Shown here one piece after another: positions 5,174-21,285 of a stretch of 34,141 nucleotides of DNA (within the stretch, counting starts at the first letter, position 1; each line of letters opens with the position of its first letter). The notes under the pieces are model-generated. The model ran no database searches and was not told where the DNA came from. It saw only the letters and a list, made by a program, of their open reading frames with translations. The DNA lies in contig NZ_JAOPXP010000001.1 of assembly GCF_025965085.1 (NCBI RefSeq), forward strand, positions 1 through 34,141. Direction: 5' to 3'. The position numbers and the translations under genes are program-made. This DNA is from Marmoricola sp. (GTDB lineage: Bacteria; Actinomycetota; Actinomycetes; Propionibacteriales; Nocardioidaceae).

Positions 5174-5191
5174 GTCAGGTTGTAGTCAGGT
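5174..5191 (+). promoter_or_regulatory. 7-N4-7 direct-repeat box (GTCAGGT type) upstream of the flippase gene
   Basis: GTCAGGT (5174-5180) and GTCAGGT (5185-5191) are perfect copies 11 bp apart, the layout bound by OmpR/PhoP-type regulators. Unlike most other boxes here it lies 58 nt before the ATG, so this mRNA would have a leader; a start near 5213 would fit the spacing seen elsewhere. A further short inverted repeat (CAACC/GGTTG) follows at once. Confidence 0.6.
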
Positions 5192-5249
5192 CAACCACGG
5201 TTGAGTCCTGGTTGGCCCGCACACGCGGGCGCGCCACGGACGGAGCCCG

Positions 5250-6314
5250 ATGACCACCGCTCTGCAGCTTCCTGCACCCGGAGTGCGAGGGGAGGGTGCT
5301 GCGCGCGGGTGGACCGGCCACCTCTGGCGGCTCCTCCTCGTGGTGACCGTGGCCGGCGGCGGCCTGTGGACGGCGTGGCACGGGGTGGCGGGTGCGGCCT
5401 GGGGCGATGTCCTCACGGTTCTCCGCCAGCTCCGGCTCGGCCAGGTGGCCACCCTCACCGCCATCTGGCTGGGCGGTCTCGGGGTGTACGCCACGGTCCT
5501 CTCGGCCGCCCTGCCGGGTCTCGGCGTACGACGCGGCCTCCTGCTGAACCTGAGCGGCAGCGCGGTCGCCAACGTCATCCCGTTCGGAGGCGCCGTCGCG
5601 ACGGGACTCAACTGGCGGATGGTGAAGCGGTGGGGGCACTCCAACCTCGCGTTCGCCACGTACTGCGTCCTGACCAACATGCTGGATGTCGGCACCAAGC
5701 TCGTCCTGCCTGTGGTGGCGGTCCTGGGCCTGAGGATCGTGTCCGTGCACGTGCCCACGACCCTGTGGGTCGTCGCCGCGGTGTGTGCCGCCGTGCTGCT
5801 CGTCACCTGGGCGGCGCAGGCCCTGGTGGTCCAGCTCGTGCCGCCCGACGAGCCTGATGGTCCGACCCCACCGCCCTTTCGTGCGGAGTGGTGGCCGGCC
5901 GGCCTGCTGGCTCCCCTGCGGCAGACGGCAGTGCGCACCCGGGCGCTCCTGATCAGGCACTGGGGTCGTCTGCTGCCCGCCAGCGCGGCCTACGTGACGG
6001 CCCAGGTGATCCTGCTGGGATTCAGCCTGCGCGCCGTGGGGCTGCACGCCCCCTTGACGGTCGTGCTGATGGCCGCAGCGATCGAACGCCTCAGCAGTCT
6101 GGTGCCGTTGACGCCGGGAGGCGCCGGTGTCGCCGAGGTGGGGACCATCGCCTGGCTCGTCGCCGCGGGTCTCGACCCCGTCGAGGTGGTGGCCGGAGTG
6201 CTCGTCTACCGCTTCTTTCTCATCGCGATGGAGGTTCCTGTGGGTGGTCTGCTGCTCGGTGCATGGGCGTGGTTCCAACGTGCACCACGACAGGCGCCGG
6301 TGCCCGCGCCGTGA
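5250..6314 (+). CDS. UPF0104/LPG-synthase-TM-type flippase-like membrane protein (354 aa)
   Basis: Polytopic membrane protein resembling the transmembrane half of lysylphosphatidylglycerol synthases (YbhN/AglD-like, UPF0104). Members act as lipid flippases or lipid-modification partners; here there is no C-terminal synthase domain, so a flippase-like role is inferred. Seven or eight hydrophobic helices are visible, with family-like features: the SGSAVANVIPFGGAVATGLNWRM region at about residues 108-130 and the LTPGGAGVAEVG loop near residues 289-300. The C-terminus is short and basic. The start ATG has GGAG a few bases upstream. It is expressed from its own GTCAGGT-type box and is followed by a tandem-repeat spacer and the convergent DedA gene. 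Confidence 0.85.
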   Translation: MTTALQLPAPGVRGEGAARGWTGHLWRLLLVVTVAGGGLWTAWHGVAGAAWGDVLTVLRQLRLGQVATLTAIWLGGLGVYATVLSAALPGLGVRRGLLLNLSGSAVANVIPFGGAVATGLNWRMVKRWGHSNLAFATYCVLTNMLDVGTKLVLPVVAVLGLRIVSVHVPTTLWVVAAVCAAVLLVTWAAQALVVQLVPPDEPDGPTPPPFRAEWWPAGLLAPLRQTAVRTRALLIRHWGRLLPASAAYVTAQVILLGFSLRAVGLHAPLTVVLMAAAIERLSSLVPLTPGGAGVAEVGTIAWLVAAGLDPVEVVAGVLVYRFFLIAMEVPVGGLLLGAWAWFQRAPRQAPVPAP

Positions 6315-6324
6315 GAGAGTCCTT

Positions 6325-6365
6325 CGGCCTCGCGGCCTCGCGGCCTCGCGGCCTCGCGGCCCTCG
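6325..6365. repeat. 8-bp tandem repeat, four perfect copies plus one variant
   Basis: CGGCCTCG is repeated head-to-tail four times (6325-6356), then once with an added C (6357-6365), ending in a near-palindrome around CCTCGAGG. It occupies the 120-bp gap between the convergent flippase and DedA genes. Such arrays often vary in copy number by replication slippage; a role in transcript ends is possible but not shown. Confidence 0.85.
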
Positions 6366-6434
6366 AGGCCAGGTGCGTGGGGCTACCCGTCGTGGGACAT
6401 GCCCCGAGTGGGCTGACAGAGGCCACCCGATCGT

Positions 6435-7097
6435 TCAGCAGGCTGCCACCGAGGGGACTTCCCCGGCACCTGCGTTCGACTCTGCCGTGACCAACCGCCC
6501 CCGGCGACGACGCAGCACCTCGATGGCGGCCGGGACGACCGAGACGCCGGCGATCACGATCGTGATCAGCTCGATGTGCGCCGCCACGAACGTGATGCCA
6601 CCGAAGAAGAAGCCCACCGTGACGATGCCGACGGCCCAGACGACGGCACCCAGCAGGTTGAGGACGGTGAAGGTGCGGTGCGGCATCCTGCCGACGCCGG
6701 CCACGACCGGGACGAAGGTGCGCACGACGGGGACGAAGCGGCCCGCGATGACGGCGATCGCTCCCCGCCTGGCGAAGAACGCCCGGGCACGCTCCGCGTT
6801 CTCCTGGCGGAACAGCCGCGAGTCCGGCCTGGAGAAGATCTTCGGGCCGTAGTGCCGACCGACCAGGTAGCCGAGCTGGTCACCGGCCACGGCAGCCAGG
6901 AGGACGCCGGCGACGAGAACCCAGAACGGCAGCGCGATGACGTGGGACGCGACCAGGGCGCCTGCCAGGAACAGCAAGGAGTCCCCCGGCAGGAAGAAGC
7001 CGAGCAAGAGGCCCGTCTCCGTGAAGACCACCGCCATCACGAGGAGGAGGGCCAGCGGGCCGAGGGCATAGAGGAGCGGCGTCAGGATCGCGATCAT
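6435..7097 (-). CDS. DedA family membrane protein (220 aa)
   Basis: Inner-membrane protein of the DedA (SNARE-associated/VTT) family. Some members translocate undecaprenyl phosphate or phospholipid head groups and support envelope integrity. The family pattern is well kept: ETGLLLGFFLPGDSLLF near the start, GDQLGYLVGRHYG in the middle, the amphipathic re-entrant region with GRFVPVVRTFVPVVAGVGRM, and NLLGAVVWA. There are four to five hydrophobic segments and normal length. The start is set at the ATG at 7097: an alternative GTG at 7127 would lie inside the direct-repeat operator, while the ATG sits at the same 21-nt distance from the operator as other genes here. It fits a lipid-carrier recycling theme with the PAP2, flippase and mannosyl-carrier genes. 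Confidence 0.92.
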   Translation of the reverse strand: MIAILTPLLYALGPLALLLVMAVVFTETGLLLGFFLPGDSLLFLAGALVASHVIALPFWVLVAGVLLAAVAGDQLGYLVGRHYGPKIFSRPDSRLFRQENAERARAFFARRGAIAVIAGRFVPVVRTFVPVVAGVGRMPHRTFTVLNLLGAVVWAVGIVTVGFFFGGITFVAAHIELITIVIAGVSVVPAAIEVLRRRRGRLVTAESNAGAGEVPSVAAC

Positions 7098-7136
7098 GCC
7101 CGGACCGTAGGTCTGCCGACCTGACACGCACCTGAT
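7098..7136 (-). promoter_or_regulatory. GTCAGGT-type box and leaderless -10 for dedA
   Basis: On the minus strand, ATCAGGT (7136-7130) and GTCAGGT (7125-7119) are 11 bp apart. The second copy ends 21 nt before the ATG at 7097, and TACGGT (7109-7104), a TANNNT -10 match, lies exactly 6 nt before the ATG. No Shine-Dalgarno is present, so a leaderless transcript is inferred. This geometry decides the start codon. Confidence 0.65.
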
Positions 7137-7142
7137 CGTTGA

Positions 7143-8489: not shown

Positions 8490-8496
8490 TGCGGGC

Positions 8497-9159
8497 TCAC
8501 CGGAGGACGAACCCGACTCCGCGCACCGTCTCGAGCGCGACCGGCGAGTCGACGGCCTCCAGCTTGACCCGCAGCCGCCGGATGAAGGAGTCGATGGTGT
8601 TCTCGCTGACCATGGCCCCGTCCGGCCAGGCAGCGGCGACGGCGGACCGCCGGCGGACGATCGTGCCTGGCTCGGCGGCGATGGAGGCGAGCAGCCTGAA
8701 CTCGGTGGGGGTCAGCTTCACCTCGGCGTCGCCGTACCGCACGGCATGCCGGTCGGGGTCCAGGTGCAGCCCGGAGACACCCTGGGGCGCTGGCCGTGTC
8801 CGCTTGTGGAGTGCCGCGACGCGCACCATCACCTCGGAGAGGGAGAACGGCTTCGCGACGTAGTCGTCGCCGCCGGAGTTGAAGCCGGCAATCCTGTCGT
8901 GGACCGCATCGAGGGCGGTGAGGAACAGGACCGGGGCGTGCTGCCCCTCTGCCCGGAGCGCCTGGCAGACATCGCGCCCGTCGGAGTCGGGAAGTCCGAT
9001 GTCGATCACCAGGACGTCGAGGCCGGCACTCACCGGGAAGTTGCGGAGCGCCTCCTGGCCGTTGCGGGCGATGACGACGGCGTGGCCGTTCATCCTGAAG
9101 GCGTCGGTCAGCACACGTCGCACCGACTCGTCGTCCTCGCAGATGCCGATCTTCGTCAC
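8497..9159 (-). CDS. OmpR-family response regulator of TCS1 (220 aa)
   Basis: Phosphorylation-activated DNA-binding regulator. The receiver domain (1-~115) has the acidic pair D9/D10, the phospho-acceptor D53 in VIDIGLPD, the threonine of FLTAL and the lysine of VAKPF. The C-terminal winged helix ends in the usual ETVRGVGFVLR. Its recognition helix (SENTIDSFIRRLRVKL) differs from those of the two other regulators in this window, which matters for operator choice. GTG at 9159 is preferred because AGGA precedes it by 7 nt; an ATG at 9177 has no ribosome site. It is divergent from the glycosyltransferase gene; the GTCAGGT box lies between them and could serve both directions. Confidence 0.92.
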   Translation of the reverse strand: MTKIGICEDDESVRRVLTDAFRMNGHAVVIARNGQEALRNFPVSAGLDVLVIDIGLPDSDGRDVCQALRAEGQHAPVLFLTALDAVHDRIAGFNSGGDDYVAKPFSLSEVMVRVAALHKRTRPAPQGVSGLHLDPDRHAVRYGDAEVKLTPTEFRLLASIAAEPGTIVRRRSAVAAAWPDGAMVSENTIDSFIRRLRVKLEAVDSPVALETVRGVGFVLR

Positions 9160-9221
9160 GGCCTCATCCTGCCCCATCGCGCAGCGCCGGCCCCCACGCT
9201 CGGACCCGATCACGCGACACG

Positions 9222-9260
9222 GTCAGGTACTGGTCAGGTCATTGCGCGCACTCTCGAAGC
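9222..9260 (+). promoter_or_regulatory. GTCAGGT-type box and leaderless -10 between TCS1 and glycosyltransferase genes
   Basis: Two perfect GTCAGGT copies (9222-9228 and 9233-9239), 11 bp apart. The second ends 21 nt before the ATG at 9261, and CACTCT (9249-9254) lies 6 nt before the ATG. No Shine-Dalgarno. The box also faces the TCS1 operon, 62 bp from its GTG, so autoregulation is possible. Confidence 0.68.
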
Positions 9261-10856
9261 ATGACGACGACCCTTGCCCGGGAGGAGGCGAAGTCGACCG
9301 CACCGCCCTGGGTTCCGGCCGCGCGGTGGCTCAGCGGGCAGGCCGAGCACCGATTCACGCGGTACGTCGTCCCTGCCATCGCGCTGGTCGCCGTGATGGT
9401 CCGGCTGCCGTTCCTGGCGGCGGACCCCAGCCGCGACGAGGCCGGGTTCCTGCTGGTCGGACAGCAGTGGCACTCCGGGGGGTCGTCCCTCTACGGCGAC
9501 TACTGGGTGGACCGGCCACCGCTGCTGATCACCCTCTTCCGGGCTGCGGCCCAGCTCGGCGGCGTGGTGCCGCTGCGCCTCATCGGGTGCGTGGCCACCG
9601 TCCTCGTGGTCTGCGGGACGGCGTACGTCGCCCGCCGCATCGGTGGGCGGACCGCGGCACCCTGGGCCGCTCTCGTGGCGGCTGCCTGGTGCGTGACCCC
9701 CCTGCTCGGTGGCCAGGCCGTCAACGGTGAGCTGCTCTCCGCGCCCTTCGTGGTCGCAGGCATCGCTGCTGCGGTGGCCGCCATCGACCACGCGAACGAG
9801 CGTCGTGGTGCGCTGGCTGCCGGGCTGGCAGGGGCCGCGACCGCGGCCGCCCTGCTCGTGAAGCAGAACATGGCCGATGTCGCGGTGTTCGCTGCTGTCG
9901 CCCTCCTCGTGGCCTGGCGTGGCGGGGAGCTGACCACCCCACGGCTCGTCCGCTCGATCGTCGCCGCTGCGGCAGGCGCCGGCCTCTGTACCGTCGTGGT
10001 GGCGCTCTGGACCATGGCCCACGGCACCTCGGTGGCCGGCGTCTTCGACGCGATGTACCCCTTCCGCGTCGAGGCCGGACGCGTCATGGCGGCCTCCGAC
10101 CGAACGACAGCCAACGCCCGGTTGTGGGATCTCCTCGTGTCCTGGGTGGTGTGCGGGGGCGTCGTGATCATGGCCCTCGTCGCCTGGGCCCTGCTCTCCT
10201 CCCGCCTGCGGGGGGCGGCGGTCTGGGGACTCGTGGCCACCGCGACCTTCGACGTCGCCTCGATCGTCCTCGGCGGCAGCTACTGGAACCACTACCTGAT
10301 CCAGCTCGTGGTCCCGGTAGCCGTGCTGGCCGGGCTGCTGATCTCCTGCCGGCTTCCCGGCGCGCGGACGGTGCTGACCGCCGTCGCGCTGTCCGCCGCT
10401 GTTGCGCTCGGCCTCTCGGTCACGGGTTCCCAGACCACCCTCGGCACCTCGGTGGGCAGGGCGATCGGAAGGGCGTCGAGCCCCCAGGACACGATCGTCA
10501 CGACTTGGGGCCACGCGGACATTACGCTCGCCTCCGGGCTGAGCTGCCCCTATCCGTACCTGTGGAGCCTCCCGGCACGCACTCTCGACCCGAGGCTTGC
10601 CGACCTCAACGCACTCCTGTCGGGTCCGCGTGCCCCCACGTGGTTCGTGACGTGGACCAGCGTCAACACCTGGGGCAACCACGGCGGCGGTGCCGTCACC
10701 GCCCGGCTGGTGGCACAGCACTACCGCCCGGTGCTGCGCTTCTTCGGCCACACCGTCTACCTCCACCAGGGCGTGGACCGTCCGGTCCCTGCGCTCCCCG
10801 CAGCCGGCGCCCGTCCCGCCGCCTCCAGTGCCAGCCTCGCCACCGCAGCCCGATGA
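9261..10856 (+). CDS. GT-C fold glycosyltransferase, GT39/ArnT-like (531 aa)
   Basis: Polytopic membrane glycosyltransferase of the GT-C superfamily, which uses polyprenyl-phosphate sugars as donors outside the membrane. The diagnostic acidic pair is in the first outer loop (PSRDEAGF, D59/E60), followed by GDYWVDRPPLL, the usual continuation of that loop. About ten to twelve hydrophobic helices follow, then a soluble C-terminal part of ~110 residues and an Ala/Pro-rich tail. The acceptor (protein, lipid or glycan) cannot be told. The next gene makes polyprenol-phosphate mannose, the likely donor, only 10 bp downstream, so the two form an operon with GtrA. Expression starts from the GTCAGGT box; the ATG is fixed by the promoter spacing. 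Confidence 0.85.
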   Translation: MTTTLAREEAKSTAPPWVPAARWLSGQAEHRFTRYVVPAIALVAVMVRLPFLAADPSRDEAGFLLVGQQWHSGGSSLYGDYWVDRPPLLITLFRAAAQLGGVVPLRLIGCVATVLVVCGTAYVARRIGGRTAAPWAALVAAAWCVTPLLGGQAVNGELLSAPFVVAGIAAAVAAIDHANERRGALAAGLAGAATAAALLVKQNMADVAVFAAVALLVAWRGGELTTPRLVRSIVAAAAGAGLCTVVVALWTMAHGTSVAGVFDAMYPFRVEAGRVMAASDRTTANARLWDLLVSWVVCGGVVIMALVAWALLSSRLRGAAVWGLVATATFDVASIVLGGSYWNHYLIQLVVPVAVLAGLLISCRLPGARTVLTAVALSAAVALGLSVTGSQTTLGTSVGRAIGRASSPQDTIVTTWGHADITLASGLSCPYPYLWSLPARTLDPRLADLNALLSGPRAPTWFVTWTSVNTWGNHGGGAVTARLVAQHYRPVLRFFGHTVYLHQGVDRPVPALPAAGARPAASSASLATAAR

Positions 10857-10866
10857 AGGAACTCTC

Positions 10867-11655
10867 ATGAAGGCCATCGTGATCGTCCCCACCTACAACG
10901 AGGCTGAGGGCATCCTCACCATGCTCGACGCAACGCTCGCGGCAGCCGACGTGGACATCCTCGTCGTGGACGACAGCAGCCCCGACGGCACCGCACGGCT
11001 CGTCACCGCACACGCCGAGTACCGGCACCGTCTGCACCTGCTCAGCCGGACGAGGAAGGAGGGGCTGGGGGCTGCCTACCGGGCCGGCTTCACCTGGGCG
11101 CTCGCCGCGTCCTACGAGGCGATCGTGCAGATGGATGCCGACCTCTCCCACCCACCTGCTCGCCTCCCGGCGCTGCTGTCCGCCCTCGAGGACGCCGACG
11201 TGGTCGTCGGGTCCCGCTACGTGCGTGGCGGCGGGGTGCGCGACTGGCCGCTGAGCCGTCGGGCCATCTCCCACGGAGGCAACCTCTACGTCCGCCTGGT
11301 CCTTCGAATCCCCGTCCACGACGCCACCGCCGGGTTCAAGGCGTTCCGGCGCGAGGCCCTGGAGCGGATCGGGGCCGTGCACTCGGAGTCCAACGGCTAC
11401 TGCTTCCAGATCGAGAACACCTGGCGGGCCAGCCGTCTCGGCCTGCGCATCGCCGAGGTGCCGATCACCTTCACCGACCGCGCCGTCGGGACCTCCAAGA
11501 TGACCGGTGACATCGTCCGCGAGGCGATGCTGCGCGTCCTGACCTGGCGCTGGCGCGAGCTGGCCAACGGCGGGGACGTCCCGGCGCCCGGAGTGCCGCC
11601 GGGAGTGTCGCCCGGAGTGTCGCCGCGTGAAGGCAGGCACGATGTCGCGGTGTGA
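10867..11655 (+). CDS. Polyprenol-phosphate mannose synthase-like GT2 glycosyltransferase (262 aa)
   Basis: Cytosolic or membrane-associated GT2 enzyme that transfers a sugar, most likely mannose from GDP-mannose, to polyprenyl phosphate (DPM1/Ppm type). GT-A features: VPTYNEAEG at residues 8-16, DD35-36, the metal-binding D-x-D at 90-92 (QMDADLSHP), VGSRYVRGG, and the SNGYCFQIE and ITFTDRAVGTSKM motifs typical of Ppm proteins. There are no C-terminal membrane helices; membrane function may be supplied by the GtrA protein next door. The ATG follows GAAGGA. The last ~30 residues are a PGVP/PGVS repeat encoded by a 12-bp tandem repeat and are probably dispensable. Same operon as the GT-C enzyme, which would use the product. 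Confidence 0.9.
   Translation: MKAIVIVPTYNEAEGILTMLDATLAAADVDILVVDDSSPDGTARLVTAHAEYRHRLHLLSRTRKEGLGAAYRAGFTWALAASYEAIVQMDADLSHPPARLPALLSALEDADVVVGSRYVRGGGVRDWPLSRRAISHGGNLYVRLVLRIPVHDATAGFKAFRREALERIGAVHSESNGYCFQIENTWRASRLGLRIAEVPITFTDRAVGTSKMTGDIVREAMLRVLTWRWRELANGGDVPAPGVPPGVSPGVSPREGRHDVAV
11587..11622 (+). repeat. 12-bp tandem repeat inside the mannose synthase gene
   Basis: Three copies of a CCCGGAGTGTCG-like unit (one or two changes each) encode PGVP-PGVS-PGVS near the C-terminus. The unit length is a multiple of three, so copy changes would keep the frame. Confidence 0.8.
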
Positions 11656-12157: not shown

Positions 12158-12167
12158 CGGCGGGTCC

Positions 12168-12297: not shown

Positions 12298-13005
12298 ATG
12301 ACACACCTGGACGGTGCGGGCGCGCCCGCCACGACCGGACGTTGCCCCTTCGCCAGGCTGCTCCAGCAGCGAGCCCTGCTGGTGCTGGTCGCAGGTCTCG
12401 CGGCCGGTGGGGTCGCAGGCCTGGTCGACGCAGCCCGTGAGCGCGACGGACTCAGCCGGCTGGATCCGGCGACGGCTGCCGCCGTGCTCCGGCTCCGCAC
12501 GCCCGGACTCACCGACCTGGCGCAGGCCTTCACCTTCGCCGGGAGCGAGGTCGTCGTGGGTGGACTCGCCGTCCTCGTCCTCGTCGCGCTCGTCGTCCGG
12601 CGACGGTTCGCGCCGGCAGCCACGTTCGCCTTCGGCATCGGCGGTTCGGCCTTCCTCACTGTTGCGGTGAAGCTGCTCGTCGCACGGCAGCGCCCCGGTG
12701 CGGCCGACCGGCTCGGCGCCCTGGACACGTCGTACTCGTTCCCCTCAGGCCACACCCTGAACTCGGCGGTCTTCCTCGCCCTGGTCGTCTGGCTGCTCTG
12801 GCCGGCCGCGCGGTACGCCGCACAGGTCGCGCTCGTCGCGGGCGGCGCCGTGATGGCGGTCGGTGTGGGGGCGAGTCGGGTCTACCTCGGCTACCACTGG
12901 CTCACAGACGTGCTGGCCTCCGCCCTCGTCGCGATCGGATGGCTGTCCGTGGTGTGGCTGCTCCGCGCACCCCTCGCACGGATCGTGGTCCGGCTGGCTT
13001 CCTGA
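12298..13005 (+). CDS. PAP2-family lipid phosphatase (235 aa)
   Basis: Membrane phosphatase of the PAP2 superfamily, likely acting on undecaprenyl pyrophosphate or a related lipid phosphate at the outer membrane face. All three signature motifs are present: K125-x6-R132-P133, P149-S-G-H152, and S193-R194-x5-H200-x3-D204, so the catalytic histidines are intact. Five to six transmembrane helices. The ATG is supported by a -10-like TACCGT placed for a leaderless transcript. It stands between the sugar-carrier operon and the phosphoesterase lipoprotein and fits carrier-lipid recycling. The exact substrate cannot be read. Confidence 0.92.
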   Translation: MTHLDGAGAPATTGRCPFARLLQQRALLVLVAGLAAGGVAGLVDAARERDGLSRLDPATAAAVLRLRTPGLTDLAQAFTFAGSEVVVGGLAVLVLVALVVRRRFAPAATFAFGIGGSAFLTVAVKLLVARQRPGAADRLGALDTSYSFPSGHTLNSAVFLALVVWLLWPAARYAAQVALVAGGAVMAVGVGASRVYLGYHWLTDVLASALVAIGWLSVVWLLRAPLARIVVRLAS

Positions 13006-13052: not shown

Positions 13053-13090
13053 ATGGGCCACGCGGGTCCACACTCGAGAGGACGATCCGC

Positions 13091-14044
13091 ATGCTGAGGC
13101 GAACGATCCCGGGGGGCCATCAGGGTCGTCTCACGGTCCTGCTCGTCGCAGGCCTGCTGGCCCTCACCGGCTGCCGGGCCACGCAGCCGTCCGACTCGGC
13201 CACCGTCCCGCCCCGGCCGCACGGGACCATCCCCACGCCCGTCGCCGCGGGGAGGACGCAGGCCACCAAGGTGCTCGTGGTCATCGAGGAGAACCACTCC
13301 TACTCCCAGGTGCGCCGTGGAATGCCCTACCTCGCGAGGCTCTCCGACACCTATGGCTACGCGACGAACTGGAGGGCGCTGGCGCACCCCAGCGAGCCGA
13401 ACTATCTGGCGATCGCCGGCGGAAGCACGTTCGGCATCAGCGACGACGCTCCACCGTCGGCCCACAGGAGGCGGATCGGCTCCGCCCTCTCGGTCTTCGA
13501 CCAGGCGCTGGCCATCCGCAGGACTGCTGCCACCTACGCACAGTCCATGCCGCGCAACTGCTACCCCAGGGACTATTCGCGCGGCCGCGCGAGGTACGCC
13601 GTACGGCACAACCCCTGGACCTACTTCCCCAGGAGCCGGGCCCGCTGCCGGGCCCACGACGTCCCCTCGCGGACGTTCGCCTCGGACGCCCGCAGGAATG
13701 CGCTGCCCAACGTCGGCTTCCTGATCCCCGACGTCGCCCACGACGGACACGACGGCTCCCTGTCCACCGCCGACAGGTGGTTGCGGCGCAAGCTGGCGCC
13801 GGTGCTGCGGAGCTCGGACTTCAGGAGCGGCAGGCTGGTGGTCATCGTCACCACCGACGAGGACGACCGGGTGTCCGGCAACTCGGTCCTCACCTCGGTG
13901 CTCACCCCCGCGGTGTCCCGCAAGGTCGTGCGCACCCGGCTGACCCACTACTCGCTCACCCGCTACATCGCCCAGGTCCTCGGGGTTCGGCCCCTGCGCC
14001 ACGCCGCCACGGCACCCGACCTCGGAGCGGCCTTCGGGCTCTGA
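13091..14044 (+). CDS. Secreted phosphoesterase-family lipoprotein (317 aa)
   Basis: Extracellular lipoprotein with an acid-phosphatase/phospholipase-C-like phosphoesterase domain (alkaline-phosphatase-like fold). The signal peptide ends in lipobox LTGC with C28. Metal and catalytic motifs: VVIEENHSY (~62-70), HPSEPNYLAIAGG (~97-109), PDVAHDGHDGS (~216-226) and TTDEDD (~256-261), matching the family's ENHS/N and D/H positions. The start has AGAGGA 8 nt upstream. A substrate such as a phospholipid, teichoic-acid fragment or phosphate monoester is possible. It is convergent with the TCS2 operon and preceded by a GTCAGGT-like box that puts it in the same putative regulon as the DedA and flippase genes. 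Confidence 0.87.
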   Translation: MLRRTIPGGHQGRLTVLLVAGLLALTGCRATQPSDSATVPPRPHGTIPTPVAAGRTQATKVLVVIEENHSYSQVRRGMPYLARLSDTYGYATNWRALAHPSEPNYLAIAGGSTFGISDDAPPSAHRRRIGSALSVFDQALAIRRTAATYAQSMPRNCYPRDYSRGRARYAVRHNPWTYFPRSRARCRAHDVPSRTFASDARRNALPNVGFLIPDVAHDGHDGSLSTADRWLRRKLAPVLRSSDFRSGRLVVIVTTDEDDRVSGNSVLTSVLTPAVSRKVVRTRLTHYSLTRYIAQVLGVRPLRHAATAPDLGAAFGL

Positions 14045-14074: not shown

Positions 14075-15461
14075 CCCCGGGCAGGTCCGGCGTTCGGGGT
14101 CTGACCGGCAGCGAGACACGGACGACCAGACCTCCCGTCGCGCCTGCCGCCAGTGAGACCGTCCCGCCTGCCTCGTGGACGAGCTCGCGCACGATGGCGA
14201 GCCCGAGCCCGCTGCCGCCGGCATCGCGGTCCCGCGCCTCGTCGAGCCGGGTGAAGCGGTCGAAGACCCTGTCGCGGTCGGCCTCGGGGACGCCGGTGCC
14301 GTCATCGCGGACGAGCACCTCGACCGCAGGTCCCTGCATCTCGGCCTCCACCTGCACCGTCGTGCCCGCGTGCCGGACAGCGTTGTCGATGAGGTTGTCG
14401 AAGACGCGCCTGAGACCCTCGGGGTCGCCGAGCACCAGCGCCTCGGGCAGCACGCCCGTCGTCACGGCCACTCGTGCGCCGGCGTGACGGCGTACCACCT
14501 GGCGCAGCAGGGGCTCGAGGGCGACCGTCTGCGGATGCCTCTCGGGTGGCGACTCCCGGTCGAGGCGGGCCAGCACGAGCAGGTCCTCGACGAGCGCGGA
14601 CATCCGCGCGACGTCCTCCTGCAGGTCCCGCGTCACCGGGGTGCCCTCACCGAGCCGCTCGGCGACCTCGAGCTGGGTCTGCATCGAGCTCAGCGGGCTG
14701 CGCAGCTCGTGGGCTGCGTCCGCGACGAACGCGCGCTGGCGGGCACGCGAGGCCGAGAGCCGGTCGAGCATGGAGTTCAGGGTGACCGCGAGCGCACGGA
14801 TCTCGTCGTGGGAGGCGGAGACGGGAAGCCGGGCGTCCTGGCCCGTCCCGGAGATCCGCTCGGCGGTGGACCGCAGCACCTCGACCGGTCGCAGCGCCGC
14901 GCCCACGACCCGCCACGCGATCGACGCCAGGACGAGGAGGAGGAGCGGATAGGTAGCGAGCAGGGTGAGGCCCAGGACCCGCTGGCTGTCCTCGATGTCG
15001 TCGAAGCGCTGCGCCACCACGACCGTACGACGGAGGTCGGTCGGTCCGGCGGGGACCGCAGAGACACGAAGTGGCGACTCCAGGCCCACTCGCGATCCGG
15101 GGACGACCGGATGCTGCCCGTCGAGGGCCGCCGCGACCTCGCCGGGGGTCACCACCGCGGTCAGCCGGTCGGCGTTGACGGAGGCACTCAGGACCCGGTT
15201 GCGGGAGTCCAGGACCTGCACGATCTGGCTTCCGGTGACCGGGATGGGGTCGGGCAGCCGGTTACGGTCCACGAGGTCGGCGACCTCGGTCGCCGTCGCT
15301 CGACCGGCGTCGTCGAGGGTCCGGAAGCTGACCACCGTCAGGACGCCGTACAGCGCGAAGCTGCCGATCGCCAGGGCCGCCGCGACACCGAGCACGCCGA
15401 TCAGGAGCAGGCGGGCGCGCAGGCTCAGCCGCTGCCAGCCCCGCGGGCCGGTCGTCCTCAT
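14061..15461 (-). CDS. Sensor histidine kinase of TCS2 (466 aa)
   Basis: Membrane sensor kinase. Order: transmembrane helix (~17-42), outer sensor region (~43-165), second transmembrane helix (~168-188), HAMP, HisKA with ADAAHELRSP (phospho-acceptor H251), then HATPase_c with N-box LIDNAVRHA, G1 DDGTGVP, F-box DRFTRLD and G2 GGSGLGLAI. All are intact. The ATG overlaps the regulator's stop by 4 bp (ATGA), so the two proteins are translationally coupled. It is most like the MprB/TcrY group in general layout, but no orthology is claimed. The divergent secreted protein and exporter are likely outputs or sensing partners. Confidence 0.93.
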   Translation of the reverse strand: MRTTGPRGWQRLSLRARLLLIGVLGVAAALAIGSFALYGVLTVVSFRTLDDAGRATATEVADLVDRNRLPDPIPVTGSQIVQVLDSRNRVLSASVNADRLTAVVTPGEVAAALDGQHPVVPGSRVGLESPLRVSAVPAGPTDLRRTVVVAQRFDDIEDSQRVLGLTLLATYPLLLLVLASIAWRVVGAALRPVEVLRSTAERISGTGQDARLPVSASHDEIRALAVTLNSMLDRLSASRARQRAFVADAAHELRSPLSSMQTQLEVAERLGEGTPVTRDLQEDVARMSALVEDLLVLARLDRESPPERHPQTVALEPLLRQVVRRHAGARVAVTTGVLPEALVLGDPEGLRRVFDNLIDNAVRHAGTTVQVEAEMQGPAVEVLVRDDGTGVPEADRDRVFDRFTRLDEARDRDAGGSGLGLAIVRELVHEAGGTVSLAAGATGGLVVRVSLPVRPRTPDLPGADPG

Positions 15462-16114
15462 GTCTCCAGGCGGTATCCCGCGCCCCGCACGGTCTCGACG
15501 AGGCGGCGGCCGAGCTTGCGTCGCAGGTAGCCGACGTAGACCTCGACGGCATTGGGATTCACGTCGTCGGGGGCGTCCCACACGTGGTCGAGGAGCTCGA
15601 TCTTGGTCACCACCCGTCCCGGACGGCGCAGGAGGTACTCCAGCAGACCGAACTCCCGAGGTGTGAGCGCGACCGCCACCCCGTCGACCGTCACCTGACG
15701 GGTGCTGGGATCGAGCCTGACGTCACCCGCCGTCAACACGGCAGGCCTGGCCTGCGGCGAACGCCTGAGCAACGCGCGGAGGCGGGCGAGCAGGACCACG
15801 TAGGAGAACGGCTTGGTCAGGTAGTCGTCGGCCCCGTAGTCAAGGCCGTCCGCCTGGTCGCGCTCCCCCGCCCGCGCCGAGAGCATCAGGACGGGCACCC
15901 AGTTCTCCTCCGAGCGCAGGGCCTGGACCACCTCGAAGCCCGAGAGCCGGGGCAACATCACGTCGAGGACGACCGCATCGAAGTCGCCGTGCCGGGCGAG
16001 CTCGAGCCCCGTCACCCCGTCACCCGCCACCTCGACGACGAACCCGTCTCCGGTCAACCCGCGCCGCAGCGCATGGGCGAGGCGCCGTTCGTCCTCGACG
16101 AGCAGTAGCCGCAT
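15458..16114 (-). CDS. OmpR-family response regulator of TCS2 (218 aa)
   Basis: Two-domain DNA-binding regulator: receiver with E7/D8 acidic pair, phospho-acceptor D51 in VLDVMLPR, LSAR and LTKPF; winged helix with the recognition segment NPNAVEVYVGYLRRKLG and the terminal ETVRGAGYRLET. The ATG at 16114 is chosen because it starts directly on the first beta strand. It has no Shine-Dalgarno, but CAGTCT lies exactly 6 nt upstream on its strand, the leaderless layout seen at other genes here. The 78-bp divergent gap to the secreted-protein gene holds TCACAG-like repeats that it may bind. Confidence 0.94.
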   Translation of the reverse strand: MRLLLVEDERRLAHALRRGLTGDGFVVEVAGDGVTGLELARHGDFDAVVLDVMLPRLSGFEVVQALRSEENWVPVLMLSARAGERDQADGLDYGADDYLTKPFSYVVLLARLRALLRRSPQARPAVLTAGDVRLDPSTRQVTVDGVAVALTPREFGLLEYLLRRPGRVVTKIELLDHVWDAPDDVNPNAVEVYVGYLRRKLGRRLVETVRGAGYRLET

Positions 16115-16126: not shown

Positions 16127-16153
16127 GCACGGCCGCTGAGCGGGCTCACAGGA

Positions 16154-16192
16154 TCTCAGTAATCTCACAGCGACCTGGCGCACGCTTGGCCC
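16154..16192 (+). promoter_or_regulatory. TCACAGC-type box and leaderless -10 upstream of the secreted LolA/RseB-like gene
   Basis: TCTCAGT (16154-16160) and TCACAGC (16165-16171) are 11 bp apart; a further CTCACAG lies at 16145-16151. The second copy ends 21 nt before the ATG at 16193, and CACGCT (16181-16186) is 6 nt before it. The half-site resembles the TCACAGC-N4-TCACAGC consensus known for mycobacterial PhoP. It is next to TCS2. Confidence 0.58.
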
Positions 16193-17329
16193 ATGAGCAC
16201 CTTCACCCGTCGTCCCGCCGCGCGGTGGCTCGTCCCCGCCGTTGTCGCCGTCCTGCTCGCCGCGGGAGGCTCCGCCGTCGGCGTCCTGGCTGCGAGCGCC
16301 CGAGGAGGCCTGCCGCACCGCAGCCCCTCACAGCTCCTCGTGGACGTCCAGAAGGCGCGACTCGACGGCCTGTCCGGGACCATCGTCCAGAACGCCTCCC
16401 TGGGCCTGCCCAGCCTTCCGGGAGTCGGTGGCGCCGGCAGCTCCGACATGACCTCGCTCGTCTCCGGGTCGCACACGCTCCGGCTCTGGTACGCCGGGCC
16501 GAACAAGGTCCGGCTCGCGCTTCTGGGGTCGTTGGGCGAGTCCGACATCGTGCGCAACGGGACCGACCTCTGGACCTGGTCCAGCAAGGACAAGAGCGCC
16601 ACGCACCGCCAGGTCCCGCTCATGAAGGCGGATGCACCCGGTCGGCTCCCTGCCACCGCGCCGGTGACGCCGCAGGAGGCCGCCGACGCCGCACTCGCGG
16701 CGATCTCCCCCACCACGAAGGTCAGCACCGACGGGACGGCCTCGGTGGCCGGGAGGACCGCCTACGAGCTCGTGCTGCAGCCGAGGGCCACCGGTTCGCT
16801 GGTGGAGTCGGTACGCATCGCGATCGACGGGAGGACCCATGTGCCCACGCGCGTCCAGGTGTTCGCCCGGGGCACGCAGGACCCCGCCTTCGAGGTGGGC
16901 TTCACCTCCTTCGACCCGTCGACCCCGGCGGCGTCCGCCTTCGCCTTCAACCCGCCGCCCCGCACGAAGGTCACCGAAGGATCCGGCCCGGCGTCCCACG
17001 AAGCCCTGCCTGGGAGCGGGAGGCGCGGTTCGGACAAGCATCGTTCGGACAAGCCTGGCTCGGCCAGCGCCGACCAGAGGCTCCAGGTCGTCGGCACCGG
17101 CTGGACGTCCGTCGTGGTCGCGAAGGTCCCCACGGGCGACAGCCAAGCCGCAGGCACGGGCTCCGGCCAGCTGGCCCGGATGCTCAAGGTCCTCCCGAGA
17201 GTGAGTGGCACCTGGGGCACGGGCCACCTGTTGAAGGGCACGTTGTTCTCGGCACTGCTCACCGACGACGGCCGGCTCGTCGTGGGGGCGGTGGCCCCGG
17301 AGGCGCTCTACGCGGCACTGGGCCGCTGA
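16193..17329 (+). CDS. Secreted LolA/RseB-like protein (378 aa)
   Basis: Exported protein with an N-terminal signal sequence (hydrophobic ~12-33, ending LAASA; no lipobox cysteine) and a middle part (about 45-265) that looks like the LolA/RseB lipoprotein-carrier fold: the LDGLSGTIVQ opening, LRLWYAGPNKVRLAL, the DIVRNGTDLWTWSSKDKSA strand pair, and ISPTTKVSTDGTASVAGRTAYELVLQP. Such actinobacterial proteins are often called outer-membrane-lipoprotein-sorting-like, though there is no outer membrane; they may bind acyl chains. A basic/Ser/Asp-rich linker (~275-300) precedes a small C-terminal part. Its stop overlaps the ABC ATPase start by one base. It is likely a sensor or substrate handler for the exporter and TCS2; that is inference. 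Confidence 0.75.
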   Translation: MSTFTRRPAARWLVPAVVAVLLAAGGSAVGVLAASARGGLPHRSPSQLLVDVQKARLDGLSGTIVQNASLGLPSLPGVGGAGSSDMTSLVSGSHTLRLWYAGPNKVRLALLGSLGESDIVRNGTDLWTWSSKDKSATHRQVPLMKADAPGRLPATAPVTPQEAADAALAAISPTTKVSTDGTASVAGRTAYELVLQPRATGSLVESVRIAIDGRTHVPTRVQVFARGTQDPAFEVGFTSFDPSTPAASAFAFNPPPRTKVTEGSGPASHEALPGSGRRGSDKHRSDKPGSASADQRLQVVGTGWTSVVVAKVPTGDSQAAGTGSGQLARMLKVLPRVSGTWGTGHLLKGTLFSALLTDDGRLVVGAVAPEALYAALGR

Positions 17330-19102: not shown

Positions 19103-19110
19103 TCCGAACG

Positions 19111-19149
19111 GTCAGGCTCCGGTCAGGTGTTCGCCCCGACACTCCTTCC
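19111..19149 (+). promoter_or_regulatory. GTCAGGT-type box and leaderless -10 for the COG4705-type gene
   Basis: GTCAGGC (19111-19117) and GTCAGGT (19122-19128), 11 bp apart; the second ends 21 nt before the ATG at 19150. GACACT (19138-19143) lies 6 nt before the ATG. No Shine-Dalgarno. Confidence 0.65.
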
Positions 19150-19947
19150 ATGACGAGTACCGACGAAGTGTCCACCCGCAGCCGACTGATGCTCAACAAG
19201 GTGCCCGAGGTCACCGTCTACTTCTGGATCATCAAGATCCTCTGCACCACGGTCGGCGAGAGCTTCGCCGACTTCGTCAACGCGACCCTGGGGTTCGGCC
19301 TCACCGACACCACCGTGGTGTTCTCGGCGGCGCTGATCGCGGTACTCACCGTCCAGTTCAGGCTCGACCGCTACGTGCCCGGCGTCTACTGGCTCGCCGT
19401 CGTGCTGATCAGCGTGGTGGGAACGCTCCTCACCGACATCCTCACCGACGGGATGGGCGTGCCGCTGTGGGCGAGCACCACGGTGTTCTCGCTGCTCCTC
19501 GCCGTCGTGTTCGGCACCTGGTACGCCCGTGAGCGCACGCTCTCGATCCACACCATCGCCACCAGGCCTCGTGAGGCGTTCTACTGGCTCACCGTCCTGG
19601 TCACCTTCGCGCTCGGCACCGCCGTCGGGGACTGGACCCTCGAGCTGACCGGCTGGTCGCCGGGCGCCGCGGTCATGCTTCCCGCCGGACTTCTCCTCGC
19701 TGTGCTCCTCGCCTGGAAGCTCGGTGCCGGACCGGTGCTGTCCTTCTGGCTCGCCTACATCCTCACCCGGCCCCTGGGCGCCAACATCGGCGACTACCTC
19801 GCCTCCCCGCGGACAGAGGGCGGCCTCGGACTCGGCACCTTCGGCACGAGTGCCCTGTTCCTGGCGACCATCCTGGCGGTCGTGGTCTTCCTGACGAAGA
19901 CGCAGAAGGACCGGACCGAGGTCGCGGCAGCCCTCCCCGGGGACTGA
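19150..19947 (+). CDS. COG4705-type membrane protein with fourfold repeat (265 aa)
   Basis: Integral membrane protein of a family without known function (COG4705-like). About eight transmembrane helices. An 18-residue motif occurs four times without gaps: residues 24-41, 79-96, 144-161 and 198-215, each fitting aromatic-W-x9-G-x4-D (for example YFWIIKILCTTVGESFAD and FYWLTVLVTFALGTAVGD). Each copy starts a pair of helices, so the protein appears to be built from four two-helix units with a W, a G and an acidic residue each, which would suit a transport path for a cation or small polar solute; that is inference. The start is fixed by the leaderless promoter. It is likely cotranscribed with the Usp-like gene 52 bp downstream. 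Confidence 0.8.
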   Translation: MTSTDEVSTRSRLMLNKVPEVTVYFWIIKILCTTVGESFADFVNATLGFGLTDTTVVFSAALIAVLTVQFRLDRYVPGVYWLAVVLISVVGTLLTDILTDGMGVPLWASTTVFSLLLAVVFGTWYARERTLSIHTIATRPREAFYWLTVLVTFALGTAVGDWTLELTGWSPGAAVMLPAGLLLAVLLAWKLGAGPVLSFWLAYILTRPLGANIGDYLASPRTEGGLGLGTFGTSALFLATILAVVVFLTKTQKDRTEVAAALPGD

Positions 19948-19999
19948 AGCCGACCGAAGACCTATCCCAGCACCCAGCACCCAGCGAAGGGAGCTCACC

Positions 20000-20434
20000 G
20001 TGAAGACACGGAGGACGCGCATCCTGGTCGTCACCGACTCGGCCGAGCCCACGGCTGCGCTCGTCGAGGCCATCCGACATCGCGCCGAGTCGGGGGACGT
20101 GCAGTTCCGGGTCGTCGTACCGAACCCGGCTCGGGCCGAGCTGCACCTGCTCCATCCGGAGCGCCACGACAAGGCGCACGAGGCCGAGCAGGTGCTGGAC
20201 AAGGCGCTGCCCGGTCTGGAGATCGCCGCGGGAGGTCGGGTGATCGGGTCGGTCTCCGTGCGCAACGACCCGATGGATGCCATCGAGGAGACCATCTTCA
20301 ACGAGCCTGTCGACGAGATCATGCTGTCGGTGGCCCGGCACGGCTTCGCGACGCGGCTCCACCAGGACCTGCCGCACCGGTTGGAGCACTTCGGTCTTCC
20401 GGTGACGGTCGTTCCTCCGGGCAACCCGCACTGA
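20000..20434 (+). CDS. Universal-stress-protein-like protein (144 aa)
   Basis: Small cytosolic alpha/beta protein with Usp-like layout: first strand ILVVTDSAE, a middle RVVVPNPA strand, DEIMLSVARHG, and a final VTVVPPG strand, close to the ends of Usp domains. The usual ATP-binding G-x2-G-x9-G-S motif of one Usp class is absent, so it would be of the non-nucleotide type or diverged. GTG start with AAGGGAG 8 nt upstream. It is followed after 12 bp by an EEP-family gene, so the two are probably cotranscribed. Function unknown. Confidence 0.75.
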   Translation: MKTRRTRILVVTDSAEPTAALVEAIRHRAESGDVQFRVVVPNPARAELHLLHPERHDKAHEAEQVLDKALPGLEIAAGGRVIGSVSVRNDPMDAIEETIFNEPVDEIMLSVARHGFATRLHQDLPHRLEHFGLPVTVVPPGNPH

Positions 20435-20446
20435 GACAGGTCCGCC

Positions 20447-21241
20447 ATGCCCGCACCCGCCTCGGGTACGCAGACCCGAGTGGCCAGCGCGAACGTCCTC
20501 TACTCGCTCGCGCCCGAGGATGCGCGGACGGCGCTCGACGCGATCCTGGCCCTGGAGCCCGACCTCGTGGGGCTCCAGGAGTGGTACCCGACCCGCTTCC
20601 GGCTGCTGAGGGAGACCGGGCACCTGGGTTTCGTGCCCCAGGTCGCTGGCCGACTGCAGCGCAGCGCCGACCGGGGCACGCCTGACTACCTGTGGAACAC
20701 GCCCCTGCTGGGCGGTTGTGCCGTGGGCGCTCGAGCGGACCGCTTCGCACTCGTCCACTGCCGGACCCGCTTCCTGAGCGCTCCCGGGCTGAGCGACCGC
20801 AAGGAGCAGGGACGGTCGCTGGAGCCTGGCCGGGCGGCCACGGTCGCGGTCTACCGCGACCTGCAGGCGGACCGCACCGTCTGCCTGGTCGACTACCACC
20901 TCGTCTCGGGAGTCCAGGCCGGCGGCCGGTACCGGACGGACCGGCCCGTCCTGACGGCACGGCACCGCCGGGAGGCGGCGATGCTGGGACGGATCGTCCG
21001 GGAGCAGCTCGCCGAGGGGCATGTCGTCCTCGCCGCCGGCGACTCCAACTTCCACGGCCTCCGCATCGAGGGCCTGACGTCTGCCTGGGAGGGACGCGAG
21101 CAGCAGCCTGGGACGCTGGGGCTGCACCGTCAGGTCGACGACGTACACGGCCCCGGTCCCGCCGAGGCCGTCACGGTGGTCACCACTGCGTCCGACCACC
21201 GCGCGATCGTCGTACGCCGAACCCACCGCGCCGACTCGTGA
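20447..21241 (+). CDS. Endonuclease/exonuclease/phosphatase family protein (264 aa)
   Basis: Soluble metal-dependent hydrolase of the EEP superfamily. Catalytic landmarks: ASANVL near residue 14 (Asn), LQEW (metal-binding Glu, ~43), a DYHLVSG strand, AGDSNFHG (Asp and Asn, ~203) and the C-terminal SDHRAIV (Asp-His pair, ~248). No signal peptide is visible. Substrates in this superfamily range from nucleic acids to phospholipids and inositol phosphates; none can be picked. The ATG follows the Usp-like stop by 12 bp, with AGG nearby. Confidence 0.87.
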   Translation: MPAPASGTQTRVASANVLYSLAPEDARTALDAILALEPDLVGLQEWYPTRFRLLRETGHLGFVPQVAGRLQRSADRGTPDYLWNTPLLGGCAVGARADRFALVHCRTRFLSAPGLSDRKEQGRSLEPGRAATVAVYRDLQADRTVCLVDYHLVSGVQAGGRYRTDRPVLTARHRREAAMLGRIVREQLAEGHVVLAAGDSNFHGLRIEGLTSAWEGREQQPGTLGLHRQVDDVHGPGPAEAVTVVTTASDHRAIVVRRTHRADS

Positions 21242-21246
21242 ACGCT

Positions 21247-21285
21247 CTCATCGTGGTCTCATCAAGGCTCCGCCACGCTCGACCC
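21247..21285 (+). promoter_or_regulatory. CTCATC-type box and leaderless -10 for the lipoprotein-ABC-TCS3 operon
   Basis: CTCATCG (21247-21253) and CTCATCA (21258-21264), 11 bp apart; the second ends 21 nt before the ATG at 21286. CACGCT (21274-21279) is 6 nt before the ATG, the same hexamer as at 16181. No Shine-Dalgarno. This third repeat type is found next to TCS3 only. Confidence 0.6.

What the first reader, a model, noticed from the sequence alone, without database searches (positions are those of the whole stretch)
5174..21285. Direct-repeat operator at a fixed 21 nt from the start codon: a family of activator-dependent leaderless promoters
Six ATGs (minus strand 7097; plus strand 9261, 13053, 16193, 19150, 21286) are preceded by two 7-bp repeats 11 bp apart, the second ending exactly 21 nt before the ATG. 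In five of them a NANNNT hexamer (TACGGT, CACTCT, CACGCT, GACACT, CACGCT) lies exactly 6 nt before the ATG and no Shine-Dalgarno is present. An OmpR-type dimer site in place of a -35 element, followed by a -10 and an ATG at the transcript's first base, explains this. Chance agreement at one-base precision in so many places is unlikely. All controlled genes encode membrane, secreted or envelope proteins.
Basis: partly seen in the sequence, partly recalled or inferred. Interest (0 to 1): 0.85.

Follow-up and report, generated by a model that had tools for sequence, protein, structure and literature searches.

The report
Fixed-spacing leaderless promoters controlling cell-envelope genes
An actinobacterium and its relatives put the same short repeated DNA tag, probably read by a stress-sensing regulator, at a fixed spot in front of genes for recycling the cell-wall lipid carrier and for envelope sugars, with translation predicted to start almost at the first letter of the message.

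Summary
Five of six ATGs are gene starts with a direct repeat and NANNNT hexamer at one geometry; ATG 13053 is not (that gene starts at 13091). It is not chance: TCAGG-N6-(T/G)CAGG-N10-NANNNT-N6/7-RTG occurs 39 times in 24 congeneric genomes, reversed control 0; 30 of 35 readable targets are DUF347, GT39-like, DedA, GT2 or YbhN-like genes. Gene-first, operator plus hexamer precede 24 of 30 DUF347, 18 of 30 DedA and 18 of 24 uppP genes (shuffled means 0.13-0.19). The constant is operator to -10 (9-10 bp); the start codon varies. RR2's own repeat keeps the layout in 5 of 5 genomes. Around RR1 relatives of 45-71% identity, including Streptomyces, 14 of 19 loci carry such a promoter; around 61 more distant regulators none. 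Best reading: OmpR-family response regulators sit where a -35 would be, as at SARP promoters, and drive leaderless mRNAs; the TCAGG regulon serves undecaprenyl-phosphate recycling and lipid-linked glycosylation. The parts are known; this regulon was not found in the papers searched. No transcript or binding data; RR1-less genomes also carry operators.

The parts
7119..7136 (-). TCAGG-type operator of the DedA gene (ATCAGGT-N4-GTCAGGT)
   Evidence: same site in G014
7104..7109 (-). -10 TACGGT, 6 nt before ATG 7097
6435..7097 (-). DedA-family (VTT domain) membrane protein, predicted leaderless
   Evidence: PF09335
7143..8489 (-). HK1, sensor histidine kinase
   Evidence: HisKA/HATPase
8497..9177 (-). 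RR1, OmpR-family response regulator; likely real start GTG 9159, itself leaderless (CAGGAT 9166-9171, 6 nt before GTG)
   Evidence: NANNNT-N6-start in 7 of 7 RR1 orthologues
9222..9239 (+). operator GTCAGGT-N4-GTCAGGT of the GT39-like gene, between it and RR1
   Evidence: kept in G014, G009, G015, G008
9249..9254 (+). -10 CACTCT, 6 nt before ATG 9261
9261..10856 (+). ArnT/GT39-like membrane glycosyltransferase (name recalled from the look of the family; no Pfam match)
   Evidence: 0 families; homologues
10867..11655 (+). GT2 polyprenol-phosphate sugar synthase (DPMS/ArnC-like)
   Evidence: PF00535
11642..12157 (+). GtrA-like membrane protein
   Evidence: PF04138
12229..12244 (-). reverse-oriented operator, 53 nt before PAP2 ATG
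   Evidence: same 53 nt in G014 and G009 PAP2
12298..13005 (+). PAP2 phosphatase; TACCGT 12286-12291, 6 nt before ATG
   Evidence: PF01569
13014..13031 (+). operator TTCAGGT-N4-TGCAGGT; hexamer GATCGT 13040-13045
   Evidence: 1 mismatch
13053..13097 (+).
   Evidence: sequence
13091..14044 (+). phosphoesterase lipoprotein gene with Shine-Dalgarno
   Evidence: PF04185
15458..16114 (-). RR2, OmpR-family response regulator; CAGTCT 6 nt before its ATG
14091..15461 (-). HK2
16154..16170 (+). RR2-type operator TCTCAG-N5-TCACAG
   Evidence: kept in 5 of 5 RR2 loci
16181..16186 (+). -10 CACGCT, 6 nt before ATG 16193
16193..17329 (+). LolA-like secreted protein (weak match), first gene of an ABC operon, predicted leaderless
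   Evidence: PF03548 E 0.024
19111..19128 (+). operator GTCAGGC-N4-GTCAGGT of the DUF347 gene
19138..19143 (+). -10 GACACT, 6 nt before ATG 19150
19150..19947 (+). DUF347 membrane protein, predicted leaderless
   Evidence: PF03988
21247..21264 (+). RR3-type operator CTCATCG-N4-CTCATCA
   Evidence: similar in G014
21274..21279 (+). -10 CACGCT, 6 nt before ATG 21286
21286..21984 (+). lipoprotein-like protein, first gene of the FtsX-ABC/TCS3 operon, predicted leaderless
   Evidence: no family above its cut-off
25991..26668 (+). RR3, OmpR-family response regulator
5174..5191 (+). operator GTCAGGT-N4-GTCAGGT before the YbhN-like gene (ATG 5250), no NANNNT at 9-10 bp
28086..28102 (-). reverse-oriented operator 55 nt before ATG 28158 (TAGGTT 28145-28150, 7 nt before ATG)

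Best explanation
These are sigma70-type promoters in which two side-by-side OmpR-family response-regulator molecules bind an 11-bp-period direct repeat at about -39 to -22 (centre -30.5 if the A of the ATG is +1), replacing a -35 element, 9-10 bp upstream of a NANNNT -10. Transcription starts about 6-8 nt after the -10, at or next to the start codon, so most mRNAs are leaderless. [Geometry and conservation: shown. Binding, activation, transcript starts: inferred.] The TCAGG operator defines a regulon around undecaprenyl-phosphate (C55-P) recycling and lipid-linked sugar transfer: uppP, DedA, PAP2, GT39-like/GT2/GtrA, YbhN-like and DUF347 genes. In this genome RR1/HK1 is the likeliest reader of TCAGG; RR2 and RR3 read their own repeats (TCTCAG/TCACAG, CTCATC) with nearly the same layout. 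The signal is probably envelope or C55-P stress, possibly divalent metal.
For: Own genome: TCAGG-N6-TCAGG 18 sites against 5 reversed, 5 of the 18 in this 34-kb contig; the 3 perfect operator-N22-ATG sites all lie here. Genus: composite pattern 39 matches in 15 of 24 genomes, control 0; of 35 readable sites all open onto an ORF of at least 150 codons, 30 homologous to five window families (without the 5 own-genome sites 25 of 30). Operator alone, no distance assumed: TCAGGT-N5-TCAGGT 46 sites, control 0; ATG/GTG of ORFs of 200+ codons lie 13 times at 22 nt and 4 each at 23 and 24; elsewhere in 0-99 nt no position exceeds 4 (59 and 61 nt). 22 of 45 distinct sites have such a start at 21-24 nt, 20 of these with NANNNT at 9-10 bp. 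Gene-first, with order-1 resampled sequences: DUF347 24 of 30 (mean 0.19, max 2), DedA 18 of 30 (0.185, max 2), uppP 18 of 24 (0.13, max 2). In uppP TANNNT falls 9 or 10 bp after the operator (9+9), 5 others at 20-21, while the start is at 21-26 nt in 16 of the 18. RR1: the divergent GT39 operator is kept in 5 of 7 genomes with an RR1 orthologue, the other two have one at DUF347 (G019) or the GT2 gene (G021). Named genomes: 14 of 19 loci with an RR1 relative of 45-71% identity (Nocardioidaceae, Streptomyces, Modestobacter, Blastococcus, Solirubrobacter) carry operator, hexamer and start at this spacing, mostly at DUF347; 0 of 61 loci of more distant regulators do (at up to 1 mismatch 15 of 19 and 0 of 61). 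RR1's own start has NANNNT-N6 in 7 of 7. RR2's operator and layout kept in 5 of 5; RR3's in 2 of 2. Same period and nearly the same centre as SARP boxes (PMC10936776 passages).
Against: No RNA, binding or mutant data. Of the 15 genomes with composite sites, 8 have no RR1 relative of 60% identity or more (7 of 24 genomes have one), so another regulator must read TCAGG there. A guess from recognition-helix residues (Arg before Leu) fits (15 of 16 against 0 of 8, post hoc), but G018 and G010 have DedA or uppP operators without such a regulator among those I aligned. 23 of 45 exact operators have no such start at 21-24 nt; several have no promoter context. 6 of 30 DUF347, 12 of 30 DedA and 6 of 24 uppP lack operator plus hexamer; 5 of the 19 named RR1-relative loci lack it too. 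In 96 genomes of other genera of the family the operator alone gives 55 sites with 6 control matches, a smaller excess. No formal search for -35 elements was made.
Confidence: 0.8

Rival explanations
1. The repeats are repressor operators: a response regulator bound at -39 to -22 blocks polymerase at ordinary leaderless promoters.
For: The position overlaps the promoter; the CutR sites predicted to repress lie between -28 and +28 (PMC12802291, passages). No expression data here.
Against: A repressor tolerates many positions, yet operator-to-(-10) spacing is 9-10 bp in uppP, DUF347 and DedA promoters. Many -10 hexamers lack the leading T (CACTCT, GACACT, CATTGT, GACCGT), which fits promoters that need help. 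The geometry is close to that of SARP activator sites.
Confidence: 0.14
2. The repeat is read by something other than a response regulator, for example a SARP or an alternative sigma factor.
For: SARPs use the same 11-bp direct repeats close to the -10; operators occur in genomes without RR1.
Against: The sites travel with RR1 relatives across genera (14 of 19 against 0 of 61 loci) and flank other OmpR-family systems (RR2-like systems next to GT39 with TCAGG-N6-TTCAGC). No SARP was looked for genome-wide.
Confidence: 0.05
3. Real promoters, but the functional theme is looser: a general envelope-stress or metal-stress regulon rather than C55-P recycling.
For: DUF347 and UppP operons rise under lead stress in Frankia (PMC4531530, passages); two ABC ATPases and three unassigned genes also carry sites.
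Against: uppP, DedA and PAP2, three different C55-P-cycle families, all carry operators; a DedA protein of Pseudomonas recycles C55-P (PMC12893004, passages).
Confidence: 0.3
4. Chance: short repeats in a 71% G+C genome.
For: Some single exact sites (for example L061, L068, L070) have no promoter context.
Against: Zero reversed-control matches in 24 genomes and resampling maxima of 2 against 18-24.
Confidence: 0.01

Closest known systems
SARP-activated promoters of Streptomyces (AfsR/afsS; PMC10936776, passages read)
   Same: OmpR-type DNA-binding domain, direct repeats with 11-bp period, 3' repeat 8 bp from the -10, box centred at -29.5, suboptimal -35
   Different: The neighbouring regulators here are two-component response regulators with receiver domains, the hexamer is 9-10 bp from the core TCAGG, and transcripts are predicted leaderless
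PhoB/OmpR-type response-regulator promoters (pho box; recalled, from no call)
   Same: Two 7-bp repeats 4 bp apart replacing the -35 about 10 bp upstream of the -10
   Different: Different repeat, leaderless start, envelope lipid-carrier regulon
Leaderless TANNNT promoters of actinobacteria (PMC3160421 and PMC3898074, passages)
   Same: -10 about 12 bp before the start codon, no conserved -35; about a fifth to a quarter of genes
   Different: Here an operator takes the -35 place at fixed spacing
MprAB / CutRS envelope-stress two-component systems of actinobacteria
   Same: Response regulators of envelope or secretion-stress genes
   Different: Published motifs differ: TKTTAAGAAM (C. glutamicum MprA, PMC12113857 passages), TAWATAAA (CutR, PMC12802291 passages). 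The M. tuberculosis MprA box paper was not held
Lead-induced UppP-DUF347 operons of Frankia (PMC4531530, passages)
   Same: UppP and DUF347 co-regulated
   Different: No operator or regulator given in the passages seen

Membership tests
Response-regulator (PhoB/OmpR-type) promoter with the operator in the -35 place | Direct repeats with 11-bp period adjoining the -10 at fixed spacing | tested here: met
Response-regulator (PhoB/OmpR-type) promoter with the operator in the -35 place | Cognate OmpR-family regulator encoded nearby | tested here: met
Response-regulator (PhoB/OmpR-type) promoter with the operator in the -35 place | Phosphorylation-dependent binding and activation | not testable with these tools
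   no binding or expression data
SARP promoter | 11-bp repeats, box centre near -29.5, close to the -10 | tested here: met
   centre -30.5 from window coordinates; definition
SARP promoter | Regulator is a SARP (ODB plus BTA domain) | tested here: not met
   neighbouring regulators are receiver-domain OmpR proteins; no genome-wide SARP search was made
Leaderless promoter | -10 hexamer placing the transcript start at the start codon | tested here: met
   one site (13053/13091) is leadered
Leaderless promoter | Mapped transcript 5' end at the start codon | not testable with these tools
   no RNA data
MprA regulon | Regulator orthologous to MprA, MprA box | tested here: inconclusive
   motif differs from C. 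glutamicum MprA; the M. tuberculosis box paper was not held; no MprA sequence was compared
CutR regulon | TAWATAAA operator | tested here: not met

The most novel reading that the evidence does not exclude
A dedicated two-component regulon for undecaprenyl-phosphate supply: one operator-(-10)-start cassette coordinates uppP, a DedA flippase, PAP2, the ArnC/GtrA/ArnT-like sugar-transfer set and DUF347 across a genus, with the RR1-DUF347 pairing reaching Streptomyces, Modestobacter and Blastococcus, which makes DUF347 a predicted member of the lipid-carrier cycle. A second, reverse-oriented form with the operator 41-42 bp upstream of the -10 serves PAP2 and the spermidine-synthase-like gene.
Probability: 0.45. 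Interest if true: 0.66.

Novelty: new member of a known kind. Interest (0 to 1): 0.52.

Why it matters
It gives a sequence rule that predicts regulated genes in unstudied actinobacteria without expression data. It ties a family of unknown function (DUF347) to lipid-carrier recycling and envelope sugar transfer, which can be tested directly, also in Streptomyces. It also suggests that three regulators with different operators share one strict layout in which the activator site, the -10 and the start codon lie within about 40 bp, so regulation and leaderless translation are built as one unit.

Tried and rejected
Rejected: ATG 13053 as gene start (stop after 14 codons). Rejected: 'fixed distance to ATG' as the constraint (uppP and DUF347 starts drift, the -10 hardly does). 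Rejected as proof: Arg in the recognition helix as the mark of a TCAGG reader; it fits (15 of 16 against 0 of 8, Fisher 1.2e-5) but was chosen after looking, counts related genomes, rests only on the regulators I aligned, and G018/G010 contradict it when DedA/uppP sites are counted. With the 37-41% regulator of G020 counted as Arg-type the split is 15 of 17 against 0 of 7.

Weak points kept: other reverse-oriented operators do not share the 53-55 nt of PAP2 and the spermidine-synthase-like gene (44, 48, 51, 55, 60 and 61 nt to the ATG at other genes). DedA starts were any in-frame ATG/GTG at or upstream of the aligned part, so several positions were tried per gene. RR1 starts were chosen by alignment, not annotation.

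Led nowhere: literature for TCAGG in response-regulator motifs (2 papers listed, neither relevant by title); leaderless plus response regulator plus direct repeat (3 papers, one useful for SARP); a uppP/DedA regulon (3 papers, by titles and abstracts not this). One search listed nothing on the MprA box among 15 of 20; one search listed no paper on PhoP activation complexes among 8 of 24. RR3 has a close relative in only 1 other genome of 24, too few for a footprint. Fold prediction was not used.

Dropped rows and limits: one search's 46 sites collapse to 45 distinct sequences. Searches read 35 of the 39 matches (the other 4 were not in loci L001-L103). Searches used the 30 DedA loci returned, of 44 matches. 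Of 26 BacA matches two with a different motif were left out, leaving 24. In one search I grouped matches into 30 DUF347 genes and left out one short fragment (G014:C28:78926). In one search the G015.C43 locus was misread in position; its operator was read, and it was anchored on its own operator, which favours it. One search's alignment used unoriented loci and is superseded. In one search one of 59 permuted control words (CAGGT) is the same motif shifted by one base and scored 13 of 19; with it the mean is 0.27 loci.
Full report
What was checked. The six upstream stretches were read and translated. Five precede real genes: DedA-like (7097-), a GT39/ArnT-like membrane glycosyltransferase (9261+; no Pfam match, name recalled), a LolA-like secreted protein heading an ABC operon (16193+), DUF347 (19150+) and a lipoprotein-like protein heading an FtsX-type ABC operon (21286+). 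The sixth ATG (13053) opens 14 codons only; the phosphoesterase gene starts at 13091 behind AGAGGA. Seven-base identity at the stated geometry is 6 (DedA), 7 (GT39), 5 (LolA-like), 6 (DUF347) and 6 (lipoprotein) of 7, and NANNNT lies 6 nt before each of the five starts; over 1947 ATG/GTG in the window only 8 reach 6 of 7.

Genome. The window is one contig of a 3.55-Mb draft genome whose RR1 has its nearest named relatives in Nocardioidaceae. TCAGG-N6-TCAGG occurs 18 times there (5 reversed), 5 of them in this contig. With N22-ATG added, 3 perfect matches exist in the whole genome and all are in the window. Further members outside it are a second GT39-like gene (GACATT-N6-GTG), a second DUF347 gene (CAGACT-N6-ATG) and uppP, whose -10 (TACCCT) is 10 bp after the operator and whose ATG is 26 nt after it.

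Relatives, pattern first. In 24 genomes of the genus the composite pattern gave 39 matches in 15 genomes and no reversed-control match. Of the 35 sites held in loci L001-L103, all open onto an ORF of at least 150 codons, and 30 are homologous to five families of the window: 13 DUF347 (one weak, E 8e-6), 9 GT39-like, 6 DedA, 1 GT2, 1 YbhN-like; 2 are ABC ATPases and 3 match nothing. Five of the 35 are this genome's own, which shaped the pattern; without them it is 25 of 30. A pattern that assumes no distance (TCAGGT-N5-TCAGGT) gave 46 sites against 0. Start codons of ORFs of 200 or more codons lie at 22 nt 13 times and at 23 and 24 nt 4 times each; the highest counts elsewhere in 0-99 nt are 4, at 59 and 61 nt. 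22 of the 45 distinct sites have such a start at 21-24 nt, 20 of them with NANNNT at 9 or 10 bp.

Relatives, gene first. DUF347 was sought by Pfam model: 30 genes by my grouping, in 17 of 24 genomes; 23 have the repeat ending 22-24 nt before the start (22, one) and 24 have operator plus NANNNT at 9-10 bp against a resampled mean of 0.19. Three of the six misses are second genes of tandem pairs. DedA: 17 of 30 loci at 21-24 nt, 18 of 30 by operator plus hexamer. uppP (BacA model): 18 of 24. In uppP the -10 stays 9 or 10 bp from the operator while the start codon lies at 21-26 nt in 16 of the 18 and further away in 2. That shows what is under constraint: regulator and polymerase contact, not the distance to the ATG.

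Other regulators. RR2 (15458-16114) is divergent from the LolA-like gene; in all 5 genomes with a close RR2 (this one, G014, G023, G018, G015) TCTCAG-N5-(T/C)CACAG is followed at 10 or 11 bp by NANNNT and then, 6 or 7 nt on, ATG. RR3 has one close relative and its CTCATC-type site and -10 are kept there. RR1's own start has NANNNT-N6 in 7 of 7 orthologues, so the regulator gene itself looks leaderless.

Who reads TCAGG. RR1 is the best candidate here. Its gene is divergent from the GT39 operator, and six orthologous loci in the genus keep an operator at GT39 (G014, G009, G015, G008), at DUF347 (G019) or at the GT2 gene (G021). Among 80 loci of named genomes fetched with RR1, 14 of the 19 with 45-71% identity have operator, hexamer at 10 bp and a start 6-8 nt on; the genes, named by eye, are DUF347 in 11 loci, DedA in 2, a GT39-like gene, one unassigned gene, and in Solirubrobacter soli the regulator gene itself; the 61 loci with lower identity have none. 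At up to one mismatch it is 15 of 19 and 0 of 61. The ten Streptomyces loci among the 19 (L111, L114-L122) give eight of these hits (not L118 and L122), each at DUF347 with 8 nt between -10 and ATG. Against this, operators and targets also occur in genus genomes without an RR1 orthologue (G005, G006, G007, G011, G012, G013, G016, G017). In several of these an RR2-like system sits near a gene with TCAGG-N6-TTCAGC at the same spacing, read as GT39-like in the three loci translated.

Reverse-oriented sites. Three PAP2 genes (this genome, G014, G009) have the operator reversed, 53 nt before ATG, and the spermidine-synthase-like gene here 55 nt before it; the -10 is then 41 or 42 bp away (-10 read by eye). 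uppP is divergent from an aldo/keto-reductase-like gene in several genomes, one operator lying between them. The three PAP2 cases are homologues of one another and other reverse sites have other spacings, so this is a lead only.

What it does. uppP makes C55-P (recalled), DedA proteins flip it back (PMC12893004, passages), PAP2 enzymes can dephosphorylate C55-PP (recalled), and GT2 + GtrA + GT39 form a charge-flip-transfer chain for lipid-linked sugars like ArnC-ArnEF-ArnT (recalled). DUF347 and UppP operons are lead-induced in Frankia (PMC4531530, passages). The shared operator therefore points to a regulon for lipid-carrier recycling and envelope sugar decoration under envelope, antibiotic or metal stress. 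Function and signal are inference.

Known and new. The layout is close to that of SARP boxes (11-bp repeats, 3' repeat 8 bp from the -10, centre -29.5; PMC10936776, passages) and, from recall, of PhoB boxes; leaderless TANNNT promoters are common in actinobacteria (PMC3160421, PMC3898074, passages). So the kind is known. The TCAGG regulon, the use of one layout by three regulators, and the DUF347 link to this operator were not found in the listings or in the passages, which cover open-licence papers only.

Noticed in passing
window 1-2705: GGDEF-EAL protein, an RsiG-like anti-sigma (PF22802) and a WhiG/FliA-like sigma factor in a row: a possible c-di-GMP-gated sigma module (the GGDEF-EAL reading and the WhiG likeness are by eye).
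   Followed up: no
window 30422-30438: TCACAG-N5-TCACAG, 11-bp period, upstream of the ferric reductase-ApbE genes; resembles the mycobacterial PhoP box (recalled); I saw no NANNNT at 10 bp.
   Followed up: no
window 13053-13097: A 14-codon ORF begins at the predicted transcript start and its stop overlaps the ATG (13091) of the phosphoesterase gene, with the Shine-Dalgarno inside it: possible coupled translation.
   Followed up: no
G007, locus L226: Tandem TCAGG units (11-bp period) before a DUF347 gene, three overlapping exact operators; G018 L282 also has three TCAGG units in a row.
   Followed up: no
G013 L220, G016 L218, G017 L219: Tandem DUF347 gene pairs: the first has the operator and looks leaderless, the second has none; G013 and G016 show a Shine-Dalgarno-like GGAG before it.
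   Followed up: partly
loci L283, L285, L286, L297, L301: uppP divergent from a conserved aldo/keto-reductase-like gene (MQQRxLGxTGLKVSRLGLG) with one operator between them.
   Followed up: partly
window 8497-9177 and six orthologues: RR1 probably starts at GTG 9159, not ATG 9177; NANNNT lies 6 nt before the corresponding start in 7 of 7 orthologues.
   Followed up: yes
loci L302, L306, L308: The same operator geometry precedes DedA (22 nt) and DUF347 (24 nt) genes in genomes of the family outside the genus.
   Followed up: partly
L110 (Solirubrobacter soli), 4285: The RR1-like regulator gene itself carries operator, GATGCT and a GTG start at this geometry, suggesting autoregulation.
   Followed up: no
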